DNA of 64,000 bases, taken from contig NZ_LMEZ01000001.1 of NCBI RefSeq assembly GCF_001426545.1, positions 1,364,912 to 1,428,911 on the forward strand, given 5' to 3'. Source of the stretch: Mycobacterium sp. Root135. GTDB lineage: Bacteria; Actinomycetota; Actinomycetes; Mycobacteriales; Mycobacteriaceae. The notes below the pieces were generated by a model. It had not been told where the DNA came from. It was given only the letters and a program-made list of their open reading frames with translations, and did no database searches. Position numbers and translations under genes: made by a program. Shown one piece after another: positions 6,681 through 19,489 of this stretch (the stretch's first letter is position 1; the number at the start of each line of letters is the position of its first letter).

Positions 6681-7388
6681 TCAGGTGGCGTTCTCCGTGT
6701 CGGGGTCGACCGCCACGATGACCCCGCGTTCGACGAGGTGCTCGGTCAGCGGCGTGACGCCGCCGGTGAAGTGTTCGGCCATGGCCGACCGTGCGGCGTC
6801 GCCGTCGCCCCGCTCCAACGCGGCGATGACGCGGCGATGATCCTTCGTGGACTGCTTGGGCCACCCGGACAGGGTCGGGAAGACCGACTCCGGTGCGTAC
6901 CGCGTGATGCCGGACATGAACTGGGTGAGCTTGGGCGAATCGCCGACCACGTTGACCAACCGGTGGAACTCGTGGTTGAGCCGCACCGTCCGCTCCAAAT
7001 CGACTCCCAGATAAGCCCTTTCGAGTTCGCCCTGAATGGCCCGCAACTCGGCGAGTTGTTCGCCGGTGACGTTCTCTGCGGCACGGGCCGCGAGTTCACC
7101 GCCGATGAAGGCCTGCACGTTGGCCACGTCGGCCACGTCGCGGGCCGTCAACTCCAGCACCATGAACCCCCGTCGCGGCTGCTGCACCAACAGCCCCTCG
7201 GAACAAAGGTTCAGTAGAGCCTCACGCACCGGCGTCACGCTGATGCCGAGGTCGGCTGCCAGCTGGTCGAGCCTCAGGTACTCCCCCGCACGACACGTGC
7301 CGTCGAAGATTCGTCGCCGGACGAAACGCGCGACGTCGTCGGACAATTGCGGACGGGGCGCGAAGTGCGGCTCAGAGTTCGTACTCAC
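6681..7388 (-). CDS. GntR-family (FadR/FCD-type) transcriptional regulator
   Basis: A 235-residue regulator. The N-terminal winged helix-turn-helix is seen in LRLDQLAADLGISVTPVREAL, which matches the GntR recognition pattern. The C-terminal all-helical FCD ligand domain is suggested by LNHEFHRLVNVVGDS and its conserved histidines. FCD regulators usually sense organic acids or acyl derivatives and repress nearby catabolic genes. Its start lies inside the 3' end of the acyl-CoA dehydrogenase gene (17-nt overlap), so it is the last gene of the SDR-thiolase-dehydrogenase operon and probably controls it through the palindrome at 10574-10586. Confidence 0.9.
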   Translation of the reverse strand: MSTNSEPHFAPRPQLSDDVARFVRRRIFDGTCRAGEYLRLDQLAADLGISVTPVREALLNLCSEGLLVQQPRRGFMVLELTARDVADVANVQAFIGGELAARAAENVTGEQLAELRAIQGELERAYLGVDLERTVRLNHEFHRLVNVVGDSPKLTQFMSGITRYAPESVFPTLSGWPKQSTKDHRRVIAALERGDGDAARSAMAEHFTGGVTPLTEHLVERGVIVAVDPDTENAT

Positions 7389-8565
7389 GCAACAAGCTCT
7401 TGCTGATGATGGTCTTCTGGATTTCGCTGGTGCCCTCGCCGATCAGGAGGAAGGGCGCGTCGCGCATCAACCGCTCGACTTCGTATTCCTTGGAGTAACC
7501 GTAGCCGCCGTGGATCCGGAAACTCTGCTCGGTCACCTCCGAACAGTATTCGCTGGCAAGGTATTTCGCCATTCCCGCCGCGACGTCGTTGCGCTCGCCG
7601 GAATCCTTCAGGCGGGCGGCGTTGACCATCATCAGATGGGCGGCCTCGACCTTGGTGGCCATCTCGGCCAACTGAAACGCGATGGCCTGGTGCTCGGCGA
7701 TGGGCTTGCCGAAGGTGCGGCGCTGCTGGGCATACCGAATGGCGAGTTCGAACGCTCGGATGCCGACCCCGCAGGCCCGGGCAGCCACGTTGACGCGGCC
7801 CACTTCGACGCCGTCCATCATCTGGAAGAAGCCTTGACCGGGTAGCTCACCAAGCACGTCGGCGTCGTCGGCGTGGTAGCCGTCGAAGATCAACTCGGTG
7901 GTGTCGATGCCCTTGTAGCCCATCTTGTCGAGCTTGCCGGGGATGACGAGACCGGGCAGCACCTCACCGAAGCCTGCTGGCTTCTCGATCAGGAATGCCG
8001 TCAGGTTGCGATGCGGCTTGTCGGCCCCCTCGTCGGTCTTCACCAGCGCCGCAACGAGAGTGGAGCTGCCGCCGTTGGTCAGCCACATCTTCTGCCCGGT
8101 GACGGTGTAGCCACCGGCGGCGTCGCGAACCCCCCTGGTGCGGATCGCCGCGACGTCGGAGCCCAGTTCCGGTTCGGACATCGAGAACGCTCCGCGCACC
8201 TCTCCCGTCGCCATCCGCGGCAGGAAGCGCCGCTTCTGCTCGTCGGTGCCGTGCTGGCGGATCATGTAGGCGACGATGAAGTGCGTGTTGACCACGCCGG
8301 ACACGCTCATCCAGCCGCGGGCCAATTCCTCGACGCACAGTGCGTAGGTGAGCAGTGACTCGCCGAGGCCGCCGTATTCCTCCGGGATCATCAACCCGAA
8401 CAGGCCCATCTCGGCCATCTCGTCGACGATGGCCTGGGGGTAGGCGTCGGCATGCTCGAGTGCCTGGGCGTTGGGGATGACCGCTCGGTCCACGAATTCG
8501 CGTACGGTCGAGACGATTTCAGCCTGGACGTCGGTGAGTCCCGCCGTCTGTGCAATGCGCGTCAT
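7372..8565 (-). CDS. Acyl-CoA dehydrogenase
   Basis: A 397-residue FAD enzyme that forms the alpha,beta double bond in acyl-CoA thioesters. Family motifs are present: AFSMSEPELGSDVAA, GQKMWLTNGG, RRTFGKPIAEHQA, RIHGGYGYSKEYEVERL, and near the end GEGTSEIQK, whose first Glu matches the catalytic base position of medium-chain enzymes. The start is the ATG at 8565, which overlaps the thiolase stop as ATGA; a longer open frame upstream lies inside the thiolase gene and is not coding. Confidence 0.92.
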   Translation of the reverse strand: MTRIAQTAGLTDVQAEIVSTVREFVDRAVIPNAQALEHADAYPQAIVDEMAEMGLFGLMIPEEYGGLGESLLTYALCVEELARGWMSVSGVVNTHFIVAYMIRQHGTDEQKRRFLPRMATGEVRGAFSMSEPELGSDVAAIRTRGVRDAAGGYTVTGQKMWLTNGGSSTLVAALVKTDEGADKPHRNLTAFLIEKPAGFGEVLPGLVIPGKLDKMGYKGIDTTELIFDGYHADDADVLGELPGQGFFQMMDGVEVGRVNVAARACGVGIRAFELAIRYAQQRRTFGKPIAEHQAIAFQLAEMATKVEAAHLMMVNAARLKDSGERNDVAAGMAKYLASEYCSEVTEQSFRIHGGYGYSKEYEVERLMRDAPFLLIGEGTSEIQKTIISKSLLREYEL

Positions 8566-9788
8566 GCCGGGACCCTCTCGAAGACGGCGGCGAGGCCCTG
8601 TCCCCCGCCGATGCACATGGTCTCCAGCCCGTATCGCCCGTCGCGCCGGTACAGCTCGCGGGCGAGCGTCGCGAGCATGCGGCCTCCGGTCGCCCCCACC
8701 GGGTGGCCGAGCGAAATTCCTGAGCCCCTGACGTTGGTTCGCTCCAAATCCTTGGTGGTGAAGCTCCACTCGCGCATCACCGCAAGCGCCTGCGCGGCGA
8801 ACGCCTCGTTCAGTTCGACGAGGTCGAGGTCGGCAAGGGTGAGGCCGGCCTTGGCCAGCGCCACTGCCGTCGCGGGCACCGGGCCGATCCCCATCAGCTG
8901 TGGCGGCACTCCCGCGACGCCCCAGGACACCAGTCGCACCAACGGCCTCAACCCCAACTCGGCGGCCTTCTCCGCAGTCGCGACGACACACATCGACGCC
9001 GCGTCGTTCTGCCCGCTGGCGTTGCCCGCCGTCACGGTGGATTCTGGATCATGTTTCACCAGAATCGGTTTCAGCGTTCCCAACGACTCCACCGAGGTGT
9101 CCGCCCGCGGATGCTCGTCGGCGTCGACCACCTGCACACCCCGGCGGCTGGTCACGGTGACCGGGATGATCTCCTCTGCCAGCAGGCCGGACTGCTGCGC
9201 GGCGACGGCCCGCCGATGCGATGTCACGGCCAACTCGTCCTGCTCCTCGCGGCCGATTCCGTATTGTCTGCGCAGATTCTCGGCGGTCTCGATCATGCCG
9301 CCGGGCACCGGATGGTCCCGGCCACCGGCGGTGGTCCGGCCCCGAGCGAGGGCGTCGTGCACCGTCACCCCGCCACGCGCTCCGCCCCACCGCATGTCGG
9401 TCGAGTGGAACACCGCGTTGCTCATCGATTCGGCGCCGCCGGCGACAACGAGGTCGTTCTGCCCGGTCGCCACCTGCATGCAGGCCTGGATCACTGCCTG
9501 CAGGCCCGATCCACAACGCCGGTCGAGTTGCATGCCGGGCACCGTCACCGGCAGACCAGCGTCGAGTGCCACGACGCGGCCGATGGCCGGTGCTTCCATG
9601 CTCGGATAGCAGTGCCCGAGGATGACGTCCTCGACGGCGTCGGGCGCCACGCCCGTGCGCTCCAGCAGACCGCGCAGGGCGGCGACACCGAGGTCGACCG
9701 CGGTAAGGGATGCGAACATGCCGCCGTAGCGTCCGATCGGGGTGCGGACGGGTTCGCAGATCACGGCCTGGCCGGCGACGGTGACCAT
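8562..9788 (-). CDS. Acetyl-CoA acetyltransferase (thiolase)
   Basis: A 408-residue thiolase that cleaves 3-ketoacyl-CoA with CoA, or the reverse. The nucleophilic cysteine is in LDRRCGSGLQAV; the later active-site motifs are LNEAFAAQAL, GSGISLGHPVGATGGR and the C-terminal MCIGGGQGLA. The start is ATG 9788, sharing one base with the SDR stop. The gene therefore lies in a tightly coupled operon with the SDR upstream and the acyl-CoA dehydrogenase downstream, forming the last step of a beta-oxidation set. Confidence 0.93.
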   Translation of the reverse strand: MVTVAGQAVICEPVRTPIGRYGGMFASLTAVDLGVAALRGLLERTGVAPDAVEDVILGHCYPSMEAPAIGRVVALDAGLPVTVPGMQLDRRCGSGLQAVIQACMQVATGQNDLVVAGGAESMSNAVFHSTDMRWGGARGGVTVHDALARGRTTAGGRDHPVPGGMIETAENLRRQYGIGREEQDELAVTSHRRAVAAQQSGLLAEEIIPVTVTSRRGVQVVDADEHPRADTSVESLGTLKPILVKHDPESTVTAGNASGQNDAASMCVVATAEKAAELGLRPLVRLVSWGVAGVPPQLMGIGPVPATAVALAKAGLTLADLDLVELNEAFAAQALAVMREWSFTTKDLERTNVRGSGISLGHPVGATGGRMLATLARELYRRDGRYGLETMCIGGGQGLAAVFERVPA

Positions 9789-12647: not shown

Positions 12648-13388
12648 ATGCACCCCCAGCCGCTTGAATTCGGCATCACGGCCGACTGCGGAATCACCGA
12701 CAACATCAGTTGGTGGGACTCCGACGCCGAAGTCACCACCGTGCTGTCGCGACCGGATACCGATCCCGAGCTCTGGGACGAATACCTTCGCGGCGCCGTC
12801 GAGAGCTACCGACGCCACGGCGTCGAGCGCGCCATCGACGTCGACGCCGTGAAGGAGGGTTCCGACACGGCCATGTTCTGGGCGACGCTGGACTCGACGG
12901 GACGGGTCATCGGCGGGCTGCGCGCCAAGGGGCCGCTCCTGTCCGCTGACGATTCGCACGCCACGGTCGAATGGGCCGGGCAGCCGGGCCTCGCCGCCGT
13001 CCGCAAGATGATCGACGACCGCGTTCCGTTCGGCGTGCTGGAGATGAAGACGGCGTGGACAACGGACGACCGCGACAAGGCGCGACGCATTTCCACGGCA
13101 CTGGCGCGCACGCCGTTCCACGCCATGACATTGTTGGAGATCCAGTTCTGCATGGCGACGTCCGCCCCGCACATCCTGGAGAGGTGGCGTACCTCGGGAG
13201 CCGTGGTTGCCCCCATACCGGCCACACCGTATCCCGACGAGAGGTACCGTACGAAGATGATGTGGTACGACCGGCGAACGTTCGCCAATCATGCTGCCCC
13301 CGATCAGATTCCGAAGATCCTCCGGGAGATGAGCATCGTGTCGACACAGGCCGAGGCGCAGCTGGTCGGCCGCGCGGCCGCCCTGTGA
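12648..13388 (+). CDS. GNAT-like acyltransferase, possibly N-acyl amino acid synthase type (Rv1356c-like position)
   Basis: A 246-residue protein starting at ATG 12648, with GAGG about 10 nt upstream; GTG 12546 would add 34 unconvincing residues. Weak similarity to GNAT/autoinducer-synthase-like folds is suggested by GRVIGGLRAKGPL, the central helix RRISTALARTPFHAM and the C-terminal pattern GAVVAPIPATPYPDERYRT, which is reminiscent of FeeM-type N-acyl amino acid synthases. This is a fold-level guess. The stop overlaps the next gene's GTG start by 4 nt, so it is coupled to the ThiF-nitroreductase fusion. Confidence 0.55.
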   Translation: MHPQPLEFGITADCGITDNISWWDSDAEVTTVLSRPDTDPELWDEYLRGAVESYRRHGVERAIDVDAVKEGSDTAMFWATLDSTGRVIGGLRAKGPLLSADDSHATVEWAGQPGLAAVRKMIDDRVPFGVLEMKTAWTTDDRDKARRISTALARTPFHAMTLLEIQFCMATSAPHILERWRTSGAVVAPIPATPYPDERYRTKMMWYDRRTFANHAAPDQIPKILREMSIVSTQAEAQLVGRAAAL

Positions 13389-15535
13389 CGGACGTAGCCG
13401 ACGTTTCCTCGAGTGCCGCCCAGATCCTGGATGCCACGCAGGATGGGGACGCCCGCCTGCTGGCCGAGCTCCGCGCCGACCCGACCGTCGAGTTCGTGGA
13501 CTCCTGGCCGAATCAGAGCGCGTCGCTGAACCGGCTCCGGCCCCCGCTGGATTCCGAGATCCTGGCCGAGGCACCTCGGTTCGCCTACTACCCGTGGCGT
13601 CGCGCGGTGGTGAAGATCCTTGGCCCTCGGTCGTTCCGTCGACTTCGACTGGACCGCAACCGAAACCTGATCACCTCCGAGGAACAAGATCGGTTGAGCC
13701 ACTTGGTGGTCGGCGTCGTCGGACTCAGTGCCGGTCACGTCATCGCACACACCCTCGCCATGCAGGGCCTGTGCGGCGAGATGCGCCTCGCCGACTTCGA
13801 CGAGCTCGAGCTGTCCAATCTGAACCGCGTACCAGCCAGTCTCTTCGACCTCGGGGTGAACAAGACCGTCGTGGCCGCGCGCCGGATCGCGGAACTGGAC
13901 CCGTATCTCGCGGTGCGCACGGCCCAGGAGGGCGTCACCGCCGACAACCTCGAGCACTTCCTCGACGGGCTCGACGTCGTCGTCGAGGAATGCGACTCAC
14001 TCGACCTGAAGGTCCGCATCCGGCAGGCGGCCAAGGCCCATCGTTTGCCCGTCCTCATGGCAACCAGCGACCGGGGCCTCGTCGACGTCGAACGCTTCGA
14101 TCTCGAACCCGACCGACCCGTCTTCCACGGCCTACTCGGCGACGTCGACCCAGACATGCTGACGGGCTTGAGCTCTCACGACAAGGTTCCCTACGTACTC
14201 CGCCTCATCGAGGTCAGCGGGCTGTCCGCGCGCGCGGCCGCATCGCTGCTCGAGGTGGGCCATGCCGTCGCCACCTGGCCACAGGTCGCAGGCGACGTGA
14301 CCCTTGGAGCGGGTCCAATCGCCGAAGCCGTGCGGAGAATCGGCCTCGGCGAACCGCTTTCGTCGGGACGGGTTCGCTTGGACGCCGCCGCCGCCCTCGA
14401 CGGCCTTGGCAAGGCCCTGCCACCGCCGGAGAATGCCGAGCGCGAAACGCATTCCGCCGCATCGATTTCTGTGCACGACGGTGATCTGCTGACCTCGATT
14501 CTCACGGCCGCGTCCCGCGCACCGTCGGGTGGCAACGTCCAGCCGTGGACCATGCATGCGGCCGACGACGCCGTCACCATCCGACTGGATCCCGAGCGGA
14601 CGTCGACCATCGACGTCGGAATGCGCGGCAGCGCAGTCGCCGTTGGTGCCGCCGCATACAACTCTCGGGTCGCCGCAGCGGCGCGCGGATTCCAGAGTGA
14701 GGTCGACTTCACCACGACCGCACCGGAAGCCCCGCTCGTGGCGCGGATCCGGCTCACCGAAGGCGCCGCCGAGACACCGGCGGTGTCCTACGACGCGATG
14801 CTCCGTCGCGAGACCAACCGCGTCCGCGGCACGGGAACGCCGTTGCCCCCGCACGTCGTCGACCAGTTGGCCGAGAGTGCGCGGCGTGAAGGCGCCCAAT
14901 TGCGTGTCGTCGTGTCACGCGCCGAGATCGACGAGATCGCGGACGTCTTCGCCTCGGCCGACCGGATTCGTTACCTGACCTCGAGACTGCACGAGGAGAT
15001 GGTGTCCGAGCTGAGGTGGCCGGGCGACGCAGACCCCGACACGGGTATCGACGTGACGAGCCTCGAACTGGGCGCCAGGGGCGACCTGGCCCTCGAGATC
15101 GTCCGCCGGCCAGACGTCATGGCGGAACTGTCGGAGTGGGATGCCGGAGCCATCCTCGGCGACGACACCGCCGCTGGCCTCAAGGCGAGTTCGGCGGTGG
15201 CGGTCGTCTCCGTGCAGGGGCGCGACCTCGCCGACTACGCACGAGGCGGCTCGGCGGTGGAGGCGACGTGGATCACCGCCCAGGAACTCGGGCTCGCGGT
15301 TCAGCCGATCTCACCGCCATTCATCTACGCGACGAACGACGAGGAACTGCAGGACGTCTCGCCCAAGCACGCCAAGGAATTGGCAGCGCTGCAAGCCCGG
15401 TTCCGCAGGGTGGTCGACGGCGACGGCGACCCGGACGAATCGTTGATCTTGGTTCTTCGGCTATCGATCGCGGGACCCGCGACGGTCCGGAGCCGCCGGC
15501 GCTCCATCGATTTCGACGGGGCACCGCTACCCTGA
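13385..15535 (+). CDS. Rv1355c-family ThiF (E1-like)-nitroreductase fusion protein
   Basis: A 716-residue two-domain protein, matching the length of M. tuberculosis Rv1355c (annotated MoeY). Residues about 85-300 form a ThiF/MoeB/UBA-like domain: VVGVVGLSAGHVIAHTLA is the nucleotide loop, followed by LADFDELELSNLNR. Residues about 365-700 are a nitroreductase-like flavin domain starting ILTAASRAPSGGNVQPW. E1 domains adenylate a carboxyl end; the flavin domain could then oxidise or reduce the product. The GTG start overlaps the GNAT-like stop (GTGA), and the c-di-GMP gene begins 4 nt after the stop. Its substrate is unknown. Confidence 0.85.
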   Translation: MTDVADVSSSAAQILDATQDGDARLLAELRADPTVEFVDSWPNQSASLNRLRPPLDSEILAEAPRFAYYPWRRAVVKILGPRSFRRLRLDRNRNLITSEEQDRLSHLVVGVVGLSAGHVIAHTLAMQGLCGEMRLADFDELELSNLNRVPASLFDLGVNKTVVAARRIAELDPYLAVRTAQEGVTADNLEHFLDGLDVVVEECDSLDLKVRIRQAAKAHRLPVLMATSDRGLVDVERFDLEPDRPVFHGLLGDVDPDMLTGLSSHDKVPYVLRLIEVSGLSARAAASLLEVGHAVATWPQVAGDVTLGAGPIAEAVRRIGLGEPLSSGRVRLDAAAALDGLGKALPPPENAERETHSAASISVHDGDLLTSILTAASRAPSGGNVQPWTMHAADDAVTIRLDPERTSTIDVGMRGSAVAVGAAAYNSRVAAAARGFQSEVDFTTTAPEAPLVARIRLTEGAAETPAVSYDAMLRRETNRVRGTGTPLPPHVVDQLAESARREGAQLRVVVSRAEIDEIADVFASADRIRYLTSRLHEEMVSELRWPGDADPDTGIDVTSLELGARGDLALEIVRRPDVMAELSEWDAGAILGDDTAAGLKASSAVAVVSVQGRDLADYARGGSAVEATWITAQELGLAVQPISPPFIYATNDEELQDVSPKHAKELAALQARFRRVVDGDGDPDESLILVLRLSIAGPATVRSRRRSIDFDGAPLP

Positions 15536-15539
15536 TCCA

Positions 15540-17396
15540 GTGTCCGCCGAAAGTACGCCCCTGAGCCTTGAACGGCTGGTGACGACTGTTGCCGTCCGGC
15601 TGATGGCGGCGAACGCGGCGACCTCGCCCCTTGTGTCTCAGGAAGTGCTCGCCGTCCTGGTGAAGTACTTCGACGTCGACATCAGCTTCCTGCGGTACAA
15701 CGACCACTCCATTCGCGCGTCGATCCTGATCGCGGAGTGGCCGGTTCGACCGGACGTGCCCGATCCCGACCCGTTGCGGGTCGTCTACTACAAGGACGCC
15801 GATCCGGTGTTCGCGTTGGCAGAGCACGTCAAGACGCCGATGGTCTTCCGACCCGAGAACGACGACTACCAGAAGCGGATCGAGGAGGGGCGCAACATCC
15901 CCCAGACCTCGATGGCGGCCGCGCCCCTCTGGTCGGGCGACGTCACCACCGGGGTTCTCGGGTTCGTCAAGATCGGCGATCGGGAGTGGAACCCCGCCGA
16001 GCTCAACGCCTTGGAGGCGATAGCGTCGCTCTTCGCCCAGGTGCAGGCCCGGGTGCAAGCCGAGGAGCGCCTTCGGTATCTGGCCGAACACGACGACCTC
16101 ACTGGCCTCCACAATCGCCGCGCGCTTCTCGACCATCTCGAAGAACGGCTCAAAGCCGGCCAGCCTGGCCCGGTTTCGGCCCTGTACCTGGATCTCGACC
16201 GGCTGAAGACAGTCAACGACTACCTCGGTCACAACGTCGGCGACTGGTTCATCCGGGTGATCGCCGAACGGTTGCAGCGCTGCATCGACGACGCCGGCGT
16301 GATCGCACGCCTCGGCGGTGACGAGTTCGTCGTCATACCCTCCACGCCGATGTCGGCGGTCGACGCCGAACAGCTCGCGAACCAGTTGTTGACGATCGTC
16401 GGCGAACGCGTCCCGGTGGGCGGCGAAATGTTGACCAGAACCGTCAGCATCGGCGTCGCGCTTGGCGAACCGGGCCGGGACTCCACGTCGGATCTGCTCC
16501 GCCGGGCCGATCAAGCGGTGCTCGAGGCGAAGGCGGCCGGTGGCAACCAGGTCGCGGTGTTCTCCGACGAGATGTCCCTACGCACCGACTACCGCAACGA
16601 CATCGAACTCCACCTGCAGGAGGTGATCGAGAACGGCGCGCTGTTCCTCCAGTACCTCCCAGAGGTCGACATGCGTACCGGCGACATCCTCGCGACCGAG
16701 GCGTTGGTCCGGTGGAATCACCCCACCCGCGGGTTGTTGTCCCCCGCCGTTTTCATCGCCGTCGCCGAGTCGATCAACCTGGCCGGCGACTTGGGGCGCT
16801 GGGTACTCAGAACGGCATGCGAGGAGTTCGCCAGGTGGCGCGCTCTCGGTGTCGCCGAGGGAATCGTCCTGAGGGTCAACGTCTCACCGGTCCAGCTGGT
16901 CACCGACGGGTTTGCGGAGACCGTCGCGGCGGTGATGCGAGAGTTCGGTCTCGATCCCGGGTCGGTATGTCTCGAGATCACCGAGACCGTGGTGGTTCAG
17001 GACCTGGAAGCGACGAGCATCACTCTGGCGGCCCTCAGAGACGTCGGCGTGAAGGTGGCGATCGACGATTTCGGCACCGGTTTCAGTGTGCTGTCCCACC
17101 TGAAGTCCCTGCCGGTCGACGTCCTGAAGATCGATCGGAGCTTCGTCGCGGACCTCGGGGAGAATCCGGACGACCTTGCGATCGTCCGCGCGGTCATCGC
17201 TCTCGCCGAGGCCTTCGAACTGGAGCTGGTCGCCGAGGGCGTGGAAACGGTCACCGCCGCAGAGACGCTGCTACGCCACGGCTGTCACCGGGCGCAGGGC
17301 TTCCTTCTTTCCCGACCGCTCAGCGGCGAGGACATGGCCTCGCTACTGGCCAAGGGGCGGGTAGCCGTGCACTTTCCCGCACCGCCAACCCTCTAG
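15540..17396 (+). CDS. dcpA: Bifunctional diguanylate cyclase/phosphodiesterase (GAF-GGDEF-EAL), DcpA-like
   Basis: A 618-residue c-di-GMP enzyme starting at GTG 15540. A GAF sensor domain covers about 20-170, GGDEF about 180-340 and EAL about 355-605. The cyclase signature is intact (LGGDEF, residues 258-263). No RxxD inhibitory site stands at the usual spacing before GGDEF. The EAL side keeps Glu387 in TEALVRW, VNVSP, CLEITET, IDDFGTGFS, LKIDRSF and VAEGVET, so both activities look possible. Architecture and neighbours match Rv1354c and M. smegmatis DcpA (MSDGC-1). Confidence 0.93.
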   Translation: MSAESTPLSLERLVTTVAVRLMAANAATSPLVSQEVLAVLVKYFDVDISFLRYNDHSIRASILIAEWPVRPDVPDPDPLRVVYYKDADPVFALAEHVKTPMVFRPENDDYQKRIEEGRNIPQTSMAAAPLWSGDVTTGVLGFVKIGDREWNPAELNALEAIASLFAQVQARVQAEERLRYLAEHDDLTGLHNRRALLDHLEERLKAGQPGPVSALYLDLDRLKTVNDYLGHNVGDWFIRVIAERLQRCIDDAGVIARLGGDEFVVIPSTPMSAVDAEQLANQLLTIVGERVPVGGEMLTRTVSIGVALGEPGRDSTSDLLRRADQAVLEAKAAGGNQVAVFSDEMSLRTDYRNDIELHLQEVIENGALFLQYLPEVDMRTGDILATEALVRWNHPTRGLLSPAVFIAVAESINLAGDLGRWVLRTACEEFARWRALGVAEGIVLRVNVSPVQLVTDGFAETVAAVMREFGLDPGSVCLEITETVVVQDLEATSITLAALRDVGVKVAIDDFGTGFSVLSHLKSLPVDVLKIDRSFVADLGENPDDLAIVRAVIALAEAFELELVAEGVETVTAAETLLRHGCHRAQGFLLSRPLSGEDMASLLAKGRVAVHFPAPPTL

Positions 17397-18838: not shown

Positions 18839-19489
18839 ATGGTGCGCCAGGCTCGATCCGAGGCGACACGTAGGAAGATCATCGACTCGGCCGTCGACCT
18901 GATCAACGAGATCGGATATCCGGCTGCCGGCTTGGGCGACATCATCGAACGTGCCGAACTGACCAAGGGCGCTCTCTACTACCACTTCGATTCCAAGGAA
19001 GCCTTGGCTACCGCGATCATCGAAGAGGGTTCGGAAAGCCTCGTCGGCGCATTTCGCGAAGCGGGACGTTCGGGGTCGCCCGGCATGGAGAACATCCTCC
19101 ACGGGTCCTTCGTGATGACTGATGTATTGAGTAACGACAGAGTTGCCAGGGCGGGGGCACGTCTCCTGCGCACCTTCGGCAGCTTCAATCCCGCCGCAAA
19201 GAGCACCCTGAAATTGTTCGTCGACGAACTCACCGAACGACTCAGGGCAGCCACGGCGGAGGGCGACCTCCGGGCAGACCTCGACCCCGAGTCCACCAGC
19301 AACAGCATCGTCGCCGGGATGATGGGCGGCGAATTGTTGTCGAGCGCCTTGGCCGACGGGACCGATCTACGCACCCGTTTCGTTCGGAACTGGGAATTGC
19401 TGTTGCCCGCCATCATCACCGACGAGTCGCTGGGCTACTACCGGGAGTTCCTGGCCCGCCAAGCGGCGCGGCAGCCTCAGACGCCCTGA
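18839..19489 (+). CDS. TetR-family regulator resembling gamma-butyrolactone receptors
   Basis: A 216-residue regulator with a strong GGAGGAG ribosome site. The N-terminal helix-turn-helix is GYPAAGLGDIIERAELTKG followed by ALYYHFDSKEALA. This pattern (KGALYYHF-SKE) is the one seen in the ScbR/ArpA type of gamma-butyrolactone receptor as well as in other TetR proteins. The C-terminal half should bind a small ligand. It lies 77 bp upstream of the paired acyl-CoA dehydrogenase genes and probably regulates them. Confidence 0.88.
   Translation: MVRQARSEATRRKIIDSAVDLINEIGYPAAGLGDIIERAELTKGALYYHFDSKEALATAIIEEGSESLVGAFREAGRSGSPGMENILHGSFVMTDVLSNDRVARAGARLLRTFGSFNPAAKSTLKLFVDELTERLRAATAEGDLRADLDPESTSNSIVAGMMGGELLSSALADGTDLRTRFVRNWELLLPAIITDESLGYYREFLARQAARQPQTP

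What the first reader, a model, noticed from the sequence alone, without database searches (positions are those of the whole stretch)
12648..17396. GNAT-like protein, ThiF-nitroreductase fusion and c-di-GMP enzyme in one coupled unit: candidate small-molecule signalling system
Three genes are joined by a 4-nt overlap and a 4-nt gap. The sequence shows an E1-like adenylation domain fused to a flavin domain, a protein with a pattern reminiscent of N-acyl amino acid synthases, and a GAF-GGDEF-EAL enzyme. Known: Rv1354c and Rv1355c keep the same order in M. tuberculosis, so the unit is conserved. Inference: the first two enzymes could make an acylated, oxidised or cyclised small molecule that the GAF domain senses to set c-di-GMP.
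Basis: partly seen in the sequence, partly recalled or inferred. Interest (0 to 1): 0.75.

Follow-up and report, generated by a model that had tools for sequence, protein, structure and literature searches.

The report
Tryptazolone synthesis coupled to c-di-GMP signalling
Two enzymes predicted to make a small ring compound from tryptophan and a fatty acid are encoded directly beside an enzyme predicted to make and break the messenger c-di-GMP, a pairing kept in most of the closely related gene clusters examined, so the compound likely feeds into that messenger.

Summary

Added here: in an even sample of the family, 70 of 70 trz-type loci have a GGDEF gene within 6 kb (about 1.3 of 63 expected by density); in 13 genomes it is the only GGDEF gene found. 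On a ThiF tree all linked loci fall in one clade, inside which a GAF-GGDEF-EAL partner is exchanged for a membrane-type diguanylate cyclase. Relative to the catalytic domains, the GAF domain is better conserved in trz-linked copies than in unlinked ones; five copies fetched later agreed.

That the GAF senses the product is unproven. GDP is the reported ligand of M. smegmatis DcpA's GAF, three plasmid trzS genes lack the partner, and five of eight TrzS-negative genomes of the genus keep dcpA. Best reading: a synthase plus c-di-GMP sensor module that works like RpfF/RpfR.

The parts
12648..13388 (+). trzA orthologue: predicted N-acyltransferase (acyl-CoA + L-tryptophan), GNAT/FeeM fold
13385..15535 (+). 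trzS orthologue: ThiF-like cyclase fused to flavin-dependent oxidase
   Evidence: NF005901 970.7 bits, cut-off 476; ThiF and nitroreductase domains; D204 and R529 invariant in 18 of 18 aligned TrzS
13652..14134 (+). ThiF domain (residues 90-250)
   Evidence: PF00899 E 1.5e-24
13385..13388 (+). 4-nt overlap of trzA stop and trzS start
   Evidence: sequence
15536..15539 (+). 4-nt gap between trzS and dcpA
   Evidence: sequence
15540..17396 (+). dcpA orthologue: GAF-GGDEF-EAL c-di-GMP enzyme
   Evidence: Pfam; EAL part close to 5yrp (that 5yrp is M. smegmatis DcpA is recalled); GGDEF and EAL motifs intact
15636..16040 (+). GAF domain (residues 33-167), predicted sensor
16083..16550 (+). GGDEF domain (residues 182-337)
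   Evidence: PF00990 E 8.5e-39
16614..17318 (+). EAL domain (residues 359-593)
   Evidence: PF00563 E 1.2e-68

Best explanation
The first two genes are predicted to make an N-acyl tryptazolone, and the c-di-GMP enzyme encoded directly behind them likely senses that product or its acyl-tryptophan precursor and would convert its level into c-di-GMP. Steps: (1) TrzA would transfer an acyl group from CoA to L-tryptophan and (2) TrzS would cyclise it with its ThiF domain and desaturate it with its flavin domain; both are shown for orthologues in PMC12856293 and inferred here from orthology. (3) DcpA keeps intact GGDEF and EAL motifs and so would make and break c-di-GMP; inferred here, reported for M. 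smegmatis. (4) The GAF domain would be the receptor; inferred from linkage and conservation only. The module works like RpfF/RpfR, a signal synthase paired with a sensory GGDEF-EAL protein (that their genes are adjacent is recalled). In one sub-clade a membrane-type diguanylate cyclase would take the sensor's part.
For: FeeM fold and TrzS orthology. Family sample: 70 of 70 trz-type loci (ThiF at least 49% identical) have a GGDEF gene within 6 kb, 1.32 of 63 expected by density; all 65 TrzS-positive genomes have a GGDEF gene against 34 of 86 others; in 13 of the 65 it is the only one found. Class sample 29 of 33, genome contigs 38 of 41. One ThiF clade (98*) holds all linked loci; one partner exchange (98*). 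Linkage survives inversion and displacement (L163, L164, L036, L039, L124). GAF residual at matched catalytic identity: linked -0.001 (n 101, sd 0.026, lowest -0.077), unlinked -0.092 (13 of 13 negative); 27 linked against 8 unlinked clusters, p 3.4e-7; 5 of 5 copies fetched afterwards negative. Second DcpA copies at trz loci behave like linked ones (+0.013, n 6). In M. smegmatis the genes are reported co-transcribed (PMC5741613 citing Bharati 2013).
Against: A review gives GDP as the (inhibitory) ligand of M. smegmatis DcpA's GAF (PMC8846402). Partners with no GAF in one sub-clade. Three mycobacterial plasmid trzS genes have neither trzA nor a GGDEF gene nearby. Five of eight TrzS-negative genomes of the genus keep a 59-62% DcpA without TrzA, so DcpA does not need trzAS. 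DcpA linked to ThiF-only loci has a diverged GAF although linked (-0.098, n 5). Faster sensor change in paralogues is common, so the GAF contrast is circumstantial; three of the five later unlinked copies keep F91 and Y110. Removing MSMEG_2196 did not change aggregation (PMC12632254). No binding or c-di-GMP data exist for this pair in what I saw.
Confidence: 0.42

Rival explanations
1. Shared state, no direct sensing: the GAF of DcpA reads GDP (starvation) and sets c-di-GMP, while TrzAS makes an oxazolone for another use; they share an operon because both are needed in the same state.
For: GDP reported as GAF ligand (PMC8846402); Bharati 2013 is titled on a starvation-induced promoter (seen as a reference); DcpA kept without trzAS in five of eight TrzS-negative genomes of the genus; most GAF core positions are shared by linked and unlinked copies.
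Against: The partner is exchanged for an unrelated-sensor cyclase while the link to trz stays; GAF conservation follows trz linkage.
Confidence: 0.33
2. Reverse flow: the c-di-GMP enzyme makes a local c-di-GMP signal that controls TrzA or TrzS activity, or release of the product.
For: Constant physical pairing; exchange of the sensor with retention of the GGDEF output.
Against: Pfam shows no PilZ or other c-di-GMP receptor domain in the two enzymes; a dedicated sensor domain on the c-di-GMP enzyme points the other way.
Confidence: 0.12
3. Operon inertia: the genes were joined once and have stayed together without a functional tie.
For: Linked loci form one clade, so one founding event suffices; trzS occurs alone on three plasmids.
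Against: Linkage spans Mycobacteriaceae, Jiangellaceae and Acidimicrobiaceae MAGs, survives local rearrangement, and the partner was replaced by another c-di-GMP enzyme.
Confidence: 0.07
4. The true receptor is the downstream TetR-family regulator (18839-19489), which passes NCBI's ScbR autoregulator-receptor model, and dcpA is a bystander.
For: NF041196 155.8 bits, cut-off 150; a similar TetR gene follows dcpA in several relatives, e.g. L037, L038, L120, L126, L161.
Against: It is missing in others of the genus with an intact unit (L127, L128, L166, L169, L193) and outside the genus, while the adjacent acyl-CoA dehydrogenase gene stays.
Confidence: 0.06

Closest known systems
TrzA/TrzS N-acyl tryptazolone pathway (Rv1356c/Rv1355c, M. 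smegmatis, R. jostii RHA1; PMC12856293)
   Same: Same gene order, same domain make-up, gene 2 above the family's NCBI cut-off
   Different: Product of the window's species unknown; the paper notes the neighbouring c-di-GMP genes but does not study them
DcpA/MSDGC-1 of M. smegmatis (MSMEG_2196)
   Same: GAF-GGDEF-EAL; EAL domain matches 5yrp over 246 residues at 400 bits
   Different: Known GAF ligand is GDP (PMC8846402); a tie to tryptazolones has not been tested in the papers I saw
RpfF/RpfR (BDSF synthase and PAS-GGDEF-EAL receptor, Burkholderia; PMC8846402 passages)
   Same: A small-molecule synthase paired with a sensory GGDEF-EAL protein
   Different: Other chemistry (fatty acid), PAS instead of GAF, binding shown there and not here
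FeeM and CoA-dependent acyl-homoserine lactone synthases (BjaI, MesI, RpaI)
   Same: Fold of the 246-aa protein
   Different: 8-16% identity over the alignments; no family-level sequence match
OxzAB and TyzACB oxazolone pathways
   Same: Acyltransferase, ThiF cyclase, flavin oxidase
   Different: Tyrosine or phenylalanine instead of tryptophan (PMC12856293); the more distant ThiF-FDO loci seen here mostly lack c-di-GMP neighbours

Membership tests
TrzAS N-acyl tryptazolone pathway | FeeM/GNAT-fold acyltransferase next to a ThiF-FDO fusion | tested here: met
TrzAS N-acyl tryptazolone pathway | Orthologue of Rv1355c | tested here: met
   NF005901 970.7 bits, cut-off 476
TrzAS N-acyl tryptazolone pathway | Catalytic residues matching D217, R540, Q651 of M. 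smegmatis TrzS | tested here: inconclusive
   D204, R529 and Q640 are the likely counterparts (D204 and R529 in 18 of 18, Q640 in 10 of 18), but the M. smegmatis sequence was not at hand to fix the numbering
TrzAS N-acyl tryptazolone pathway | Tryptazolone detected in the organism | not testable with these tools
   needs metabolite extraction
DcpA bifunctional c-di-GMP enzyme | GAF-GGDEF-EAL with intact GGDEF and EAL catalytic motifs | tested here: met
DcpA bifunctional c-di-GMP enzyme | GAF domain binds GDP | not testable with these tools
   ligand known only from the review PMC8846402 for M. smegmatis
RpfF/RpfR-type synthase and c-di-GMP receptor pair | Synthase gene next to a sensory GGDEF-EAL gene | tested here: met
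RpfF/RpfR-type synthase and c-di-GMP receptor pair | PAS-type sensor domain of RpfR | tested here: not met
   sensor domain is GAF
RpfF/RpfR-type synthase and c-di-GMP receptor pair | Sensor binds the synthase's product | not testable with these tools
   no binding data
LuxI-type acyl-homoserine lactone synthase | Sequence match to a described autoinducer synthase family | tested here: not met
   no Pfam or NCBIfam family up to E 1; likeness is of fold only

The most novel reading that the evidence does not exclude
Actinobacteria carry a self-contained signalling module in which an acyl-tryptazolone made by TrzAS is read by a dedicated c-di-GMP enzyme: a GAF-GGDEF-EAL protein in most lineages, a membrane diguanylate cyclase in the Gordonia/Williamsia type. 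In mycobacteria with a single GGDEF gene, c-di-GMP signalling as a whole would then be the output of this oxazolone signal: a self- or quorum-sensing system in a genus for which PMC12632254 says none has been described.
Probability: 0.33. Interest if true: 0.85.

Novelty: new variant of a known kind. Interest (0 to 1): 0.62.

Why it matters
Two open questions would meet: what the newly found oxazolones are for (PMC12856293 calls this a major unresolved question) and what the single c-di-GMP enzyme of many mycobacteria senses (PMC12632254 calls the role of c-di-GMP in mycobacterial biofilms unclear). The co-inheritance, the exchange of the c-di-GMP partner and the sensor-domain contrast turn a one-sentence remark into a specific claim that can be tested in non-pathogenic strains.

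Tried and rejected
Molybdopterin synthesis (old name MoeY): rejected, as gene 2 fits the Rv1355c equivalog far better than any MoeB/ThiF model and the orthologue's chemistry is published. GAF sensing as a general rule: rejected, because 'GGDEF> trzA< trzS>' loci carry a cyclase with no Pfam family over cut-off other than GGDEF (four examples) and with 4 to 7 hydrophobic 19-mers before the GGDEF motif in 14 of 14 examined (Kyte-Doolittle only; no membrane predictor was run). RNA switch between 9000 and 21000: none above threshold (one match at E 0.89). FDO position 640 (Q or H) as a mark of partner type: not clean (DcpA-linked Q 72, H 27, R 1; cyclase-linked H 12, C 6, A 2, S 1, Y 1). The own-genome TrzA paralogue (50%) as part of the system: no ThiF, FDO or GGDEF match in its 14-kb context; neighbours are transporter, thioesterase and kinase genes. 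Position 128 as a linked-type mark: the window itself has A there. Solved GAF relatives by sequence: only a chance-level match, E 0.27.

Rows dropped before counts. Family sample: 75 of the 77 places other than the window were opened; G133:C20 (46%) and the contig-end fragment G134:C14 were not. Class sample: 40 new loci opened (39 with a ThiF match); G509 (44%) and the FDO-only place G465:C331 were not. Genome contigs: 12 of 80 loci (L228-L239) have no ThiF match and were not counted. Unlinked at 49% or more: class L125, L130 (contig end; its other half L131 carries dcpA), L150, L156; genome contigs L168, L175 (contig end), L199; plasmids L113, L114, L119. Of 21 plasmid records with a match seven were opened. 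Some genome-contig loci are the same contigs as unnamed ones (L171/L056, L173/L139, L191/L134 by equal contig lengths), so the samples overlap. GGDEF counts per genome were capped at 22 and 9 scored candidates. In the tree, 187 ThiF rows were thinned to 121, and the label DcpA there means any GGDEF gene with an EAL domain within 6 kb. L131 was first labelled unlinked and then moved to linked. Unlinked DcpA copies come from few lineages, so the p-values are optimistic. In one search (no TrzA in 12 genomes) there was no positive control.

Full report
What is there. Three + strand genes at 12648-13388, 13385-15535 and 15540-17396 are joined by a 4-nt overlap and a 4-nt gap. Gene 2 is a ThiF-nitroreductase fusion that passes NCBIfam's 'Rv1355c family' model with 970.7 bits (cut-off 476); gene 3 is GAF-GGDEF-EAL; gene 1 has no family match up to E 1. 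The window lies in a 6.5-Mb genome; the named relatives of gene 1 in the protein search are Mycobacterium/Mycolicibacterium.

How strong the c-di-GMP link is. In 151 genomes drawn from the family, TrzS matches occur in 65, strong DcpA matches in 47 and GGDEF domains in 99. All 65 TrzS-positive genomes have a GGDEF gene, against 34 of 86 others. I opened 75 of the 77 TrzS/ThiF places other than the window and mapped them. Where the ThiF domain is at least 49% identical to the window's, 70 of 70 loci (57 fusions, 13 ThiF only) have a GGDEF gene within 6 kb; of the five below 49%, none has. Density alone would give 1.32 of 63. In 13 TrzS-positive genomes the linked gene is the only GGDEF gene found. 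Among new loci of the class sample (394 genomes) 29 of 33 are linked; among named genome contigs 38 of 41, with Mycobacterium, Nocardia, Rhodococcus, Gordonia, Jiangella, Phytoactinopolyspora and Acidimicrobiaceae MAGs. Of 27 more distant loci there, many of them Bacteroidota, one is linked.

Two architectures, one clade. Most linked loci read trzA > trzS > GAF-GGDEF-EAL. In Williamsia, Gordonia and other groups, and on two Rhodococcus plasmids, the order is GGDEF > trzA < trzS >; the GGDEF protein has 4 to 7 hydrophobic stretches before its GGDEF motif in 14 of 14 examined and no GAF match in the four scanned. On a tree of 121 ThiF domains every linked locus falls in one clade (support 98*; 87 rows: 66 with GGDEF-EAL, 17 with the membrane-type cyclase, 3 without, 1 not scored), and the cyclase loci form one sub-clade (98*) (quick method). 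The link outlives rearrangement: dcpA inverted downstream (L163), between trzA and trzS (L164), or beside trzA with trzS 4 to 6 kb away (L036, L039, L124).

The sensor domain. I compared 101 linked DcpA proteins with 13 unlinked ones, 5 linked to ThiF-only loci and 6 second copies at trz loci. At matched identity of the catalytic domains, linked copies average -0.001 (sd 0.026, lowest -0.077) in GAF identity; unlinked copies average -0.092, 13 of 13 negative; ThiF-only-linked copies -0.098; second copies +0.013. Clustered to reduce kinship, 27 linked against 8 unlinked groups give p 3.4e-7. Five further unlinked copies, fetched afterwards, are all negative (-0.061 to -0.083). F91 (96 of 101 against 4 of 13) and Y110 (98 of 100 against 2 of 10) are typical of linked copies, though three of the five later copies keep both. 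Both lie on short helices of the GAF model, where GAF domains often hold ligands (recalled). Catalytic motifs are kept: GGDEF in 78 and AGDEF in 21 of 101, the EAL glutamate in 101 of 101. This fits a ligand tied to the trz locus, but ordinary sensor change in paralogues would give the same.

Against direct sensing. A review (PMC8846402, passages) lists GDP as the inhibitory ligand of M. smegmatis DcpA's GAF; the primary paper was not seen. Three mycobacterial plasmid trzS genes have P450, TetR and dienelactone hydrolase neighbours and neither trzA nor a GGDEF gene. Five of eight TrzS-negative genomes of the genus in the class sample keep a 59-62% DcpA, with no TrzA found (no positive control in 112). 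Removing MSMEG_2196 does not change aggregation, though it is said to affect colony morphology (PMC12632254, passages).

From M. smegmatis. PMC5741613 (passages) reports from Bharati 2013 (not seen) that MSMEG_2196 is transcribed together with MSMEG_2199 onward or alone; MSMEG_2198 is a ThiF family protein (PMC5656591, passage); [quoted passage not shown] The co-transcription that the window's spacing suggests has thus been reported in a relative.

Verdict. Observation confirmed; enzymes as guessed and already published; signalling idea already hinted at in print, here backed by wide co-inheritance, partner exchange and a sensor-domain contrast, but without binding evidence and with GDP as a published rival ligand. 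Literature on a tie between oxazolones and c-di-GMP was sought (one library of open papers); beyond the sentence in PMC12856293 I found none in the listings and passages seen.

Noticed in passing
window 18839-19489 (+): TetR-family gene downstream of dcpA passes NCBI's ScbR autoregulator-receptor model (155.8 bits, cut-off 150); kept in only part of the genus beside an acyl-CoA dehydrogenase gene.
   Followed up: partly
L033 5565-6371 (-), own genome C1:505675-506331: A second TrzA-like protein (50% identical) without ThiF, FDO or GGDEF neighbours, between ABC transporter and thioesterase genes: perhaps an acyl amino acid synthase of another pathway.
   Followed up: partly
L113, L114, L119: Plasmid trzS genes in Mycolicibacterium/Mycobacterium beside a P450, a TetR regulator and a dienelactone hydrolase, without trzA: a possible further tailoring of oxazolones.
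   Followed up: no
L093 12161-14305: Two proteins with an Rv3651-like N-terminal domain follow dcpA at a ThiF-only locus.
   Followed up: no
L094-L097, L099, L100, L102-L104: ThiF-only loci with a membrane-type cyclase and no FDO match nearby; L095 has an unassigned 485-aa ORF at 7132-8589.
   Followed up: partly
L117 6954-9878: Nitratidesulfovibrio plasmid gene of about 975 aa with ThiF- and FDO-like parts in a PEP-CTERM/polysaccharide region, with a PilZ gene about 4.8 kb further: a distant relative in another context.
   Followed up: no
literature, Rv1353c-Rv1356c: PMC10198500 (passages) describes a 4,752-bp natural deletion that removes or cuts rv1353c-rv1356c in 30 clinical M. tuberculosis genomes, so the locus is dispensable there.
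   Followed up: no
literature, MSMEG_2198: The ThiF family protein MSMEG_2198 is lowered 1.6-fold in a pafBC deletion (PMC5656591, passage), a possible tie to the DNA damage response.
   Followed up: no
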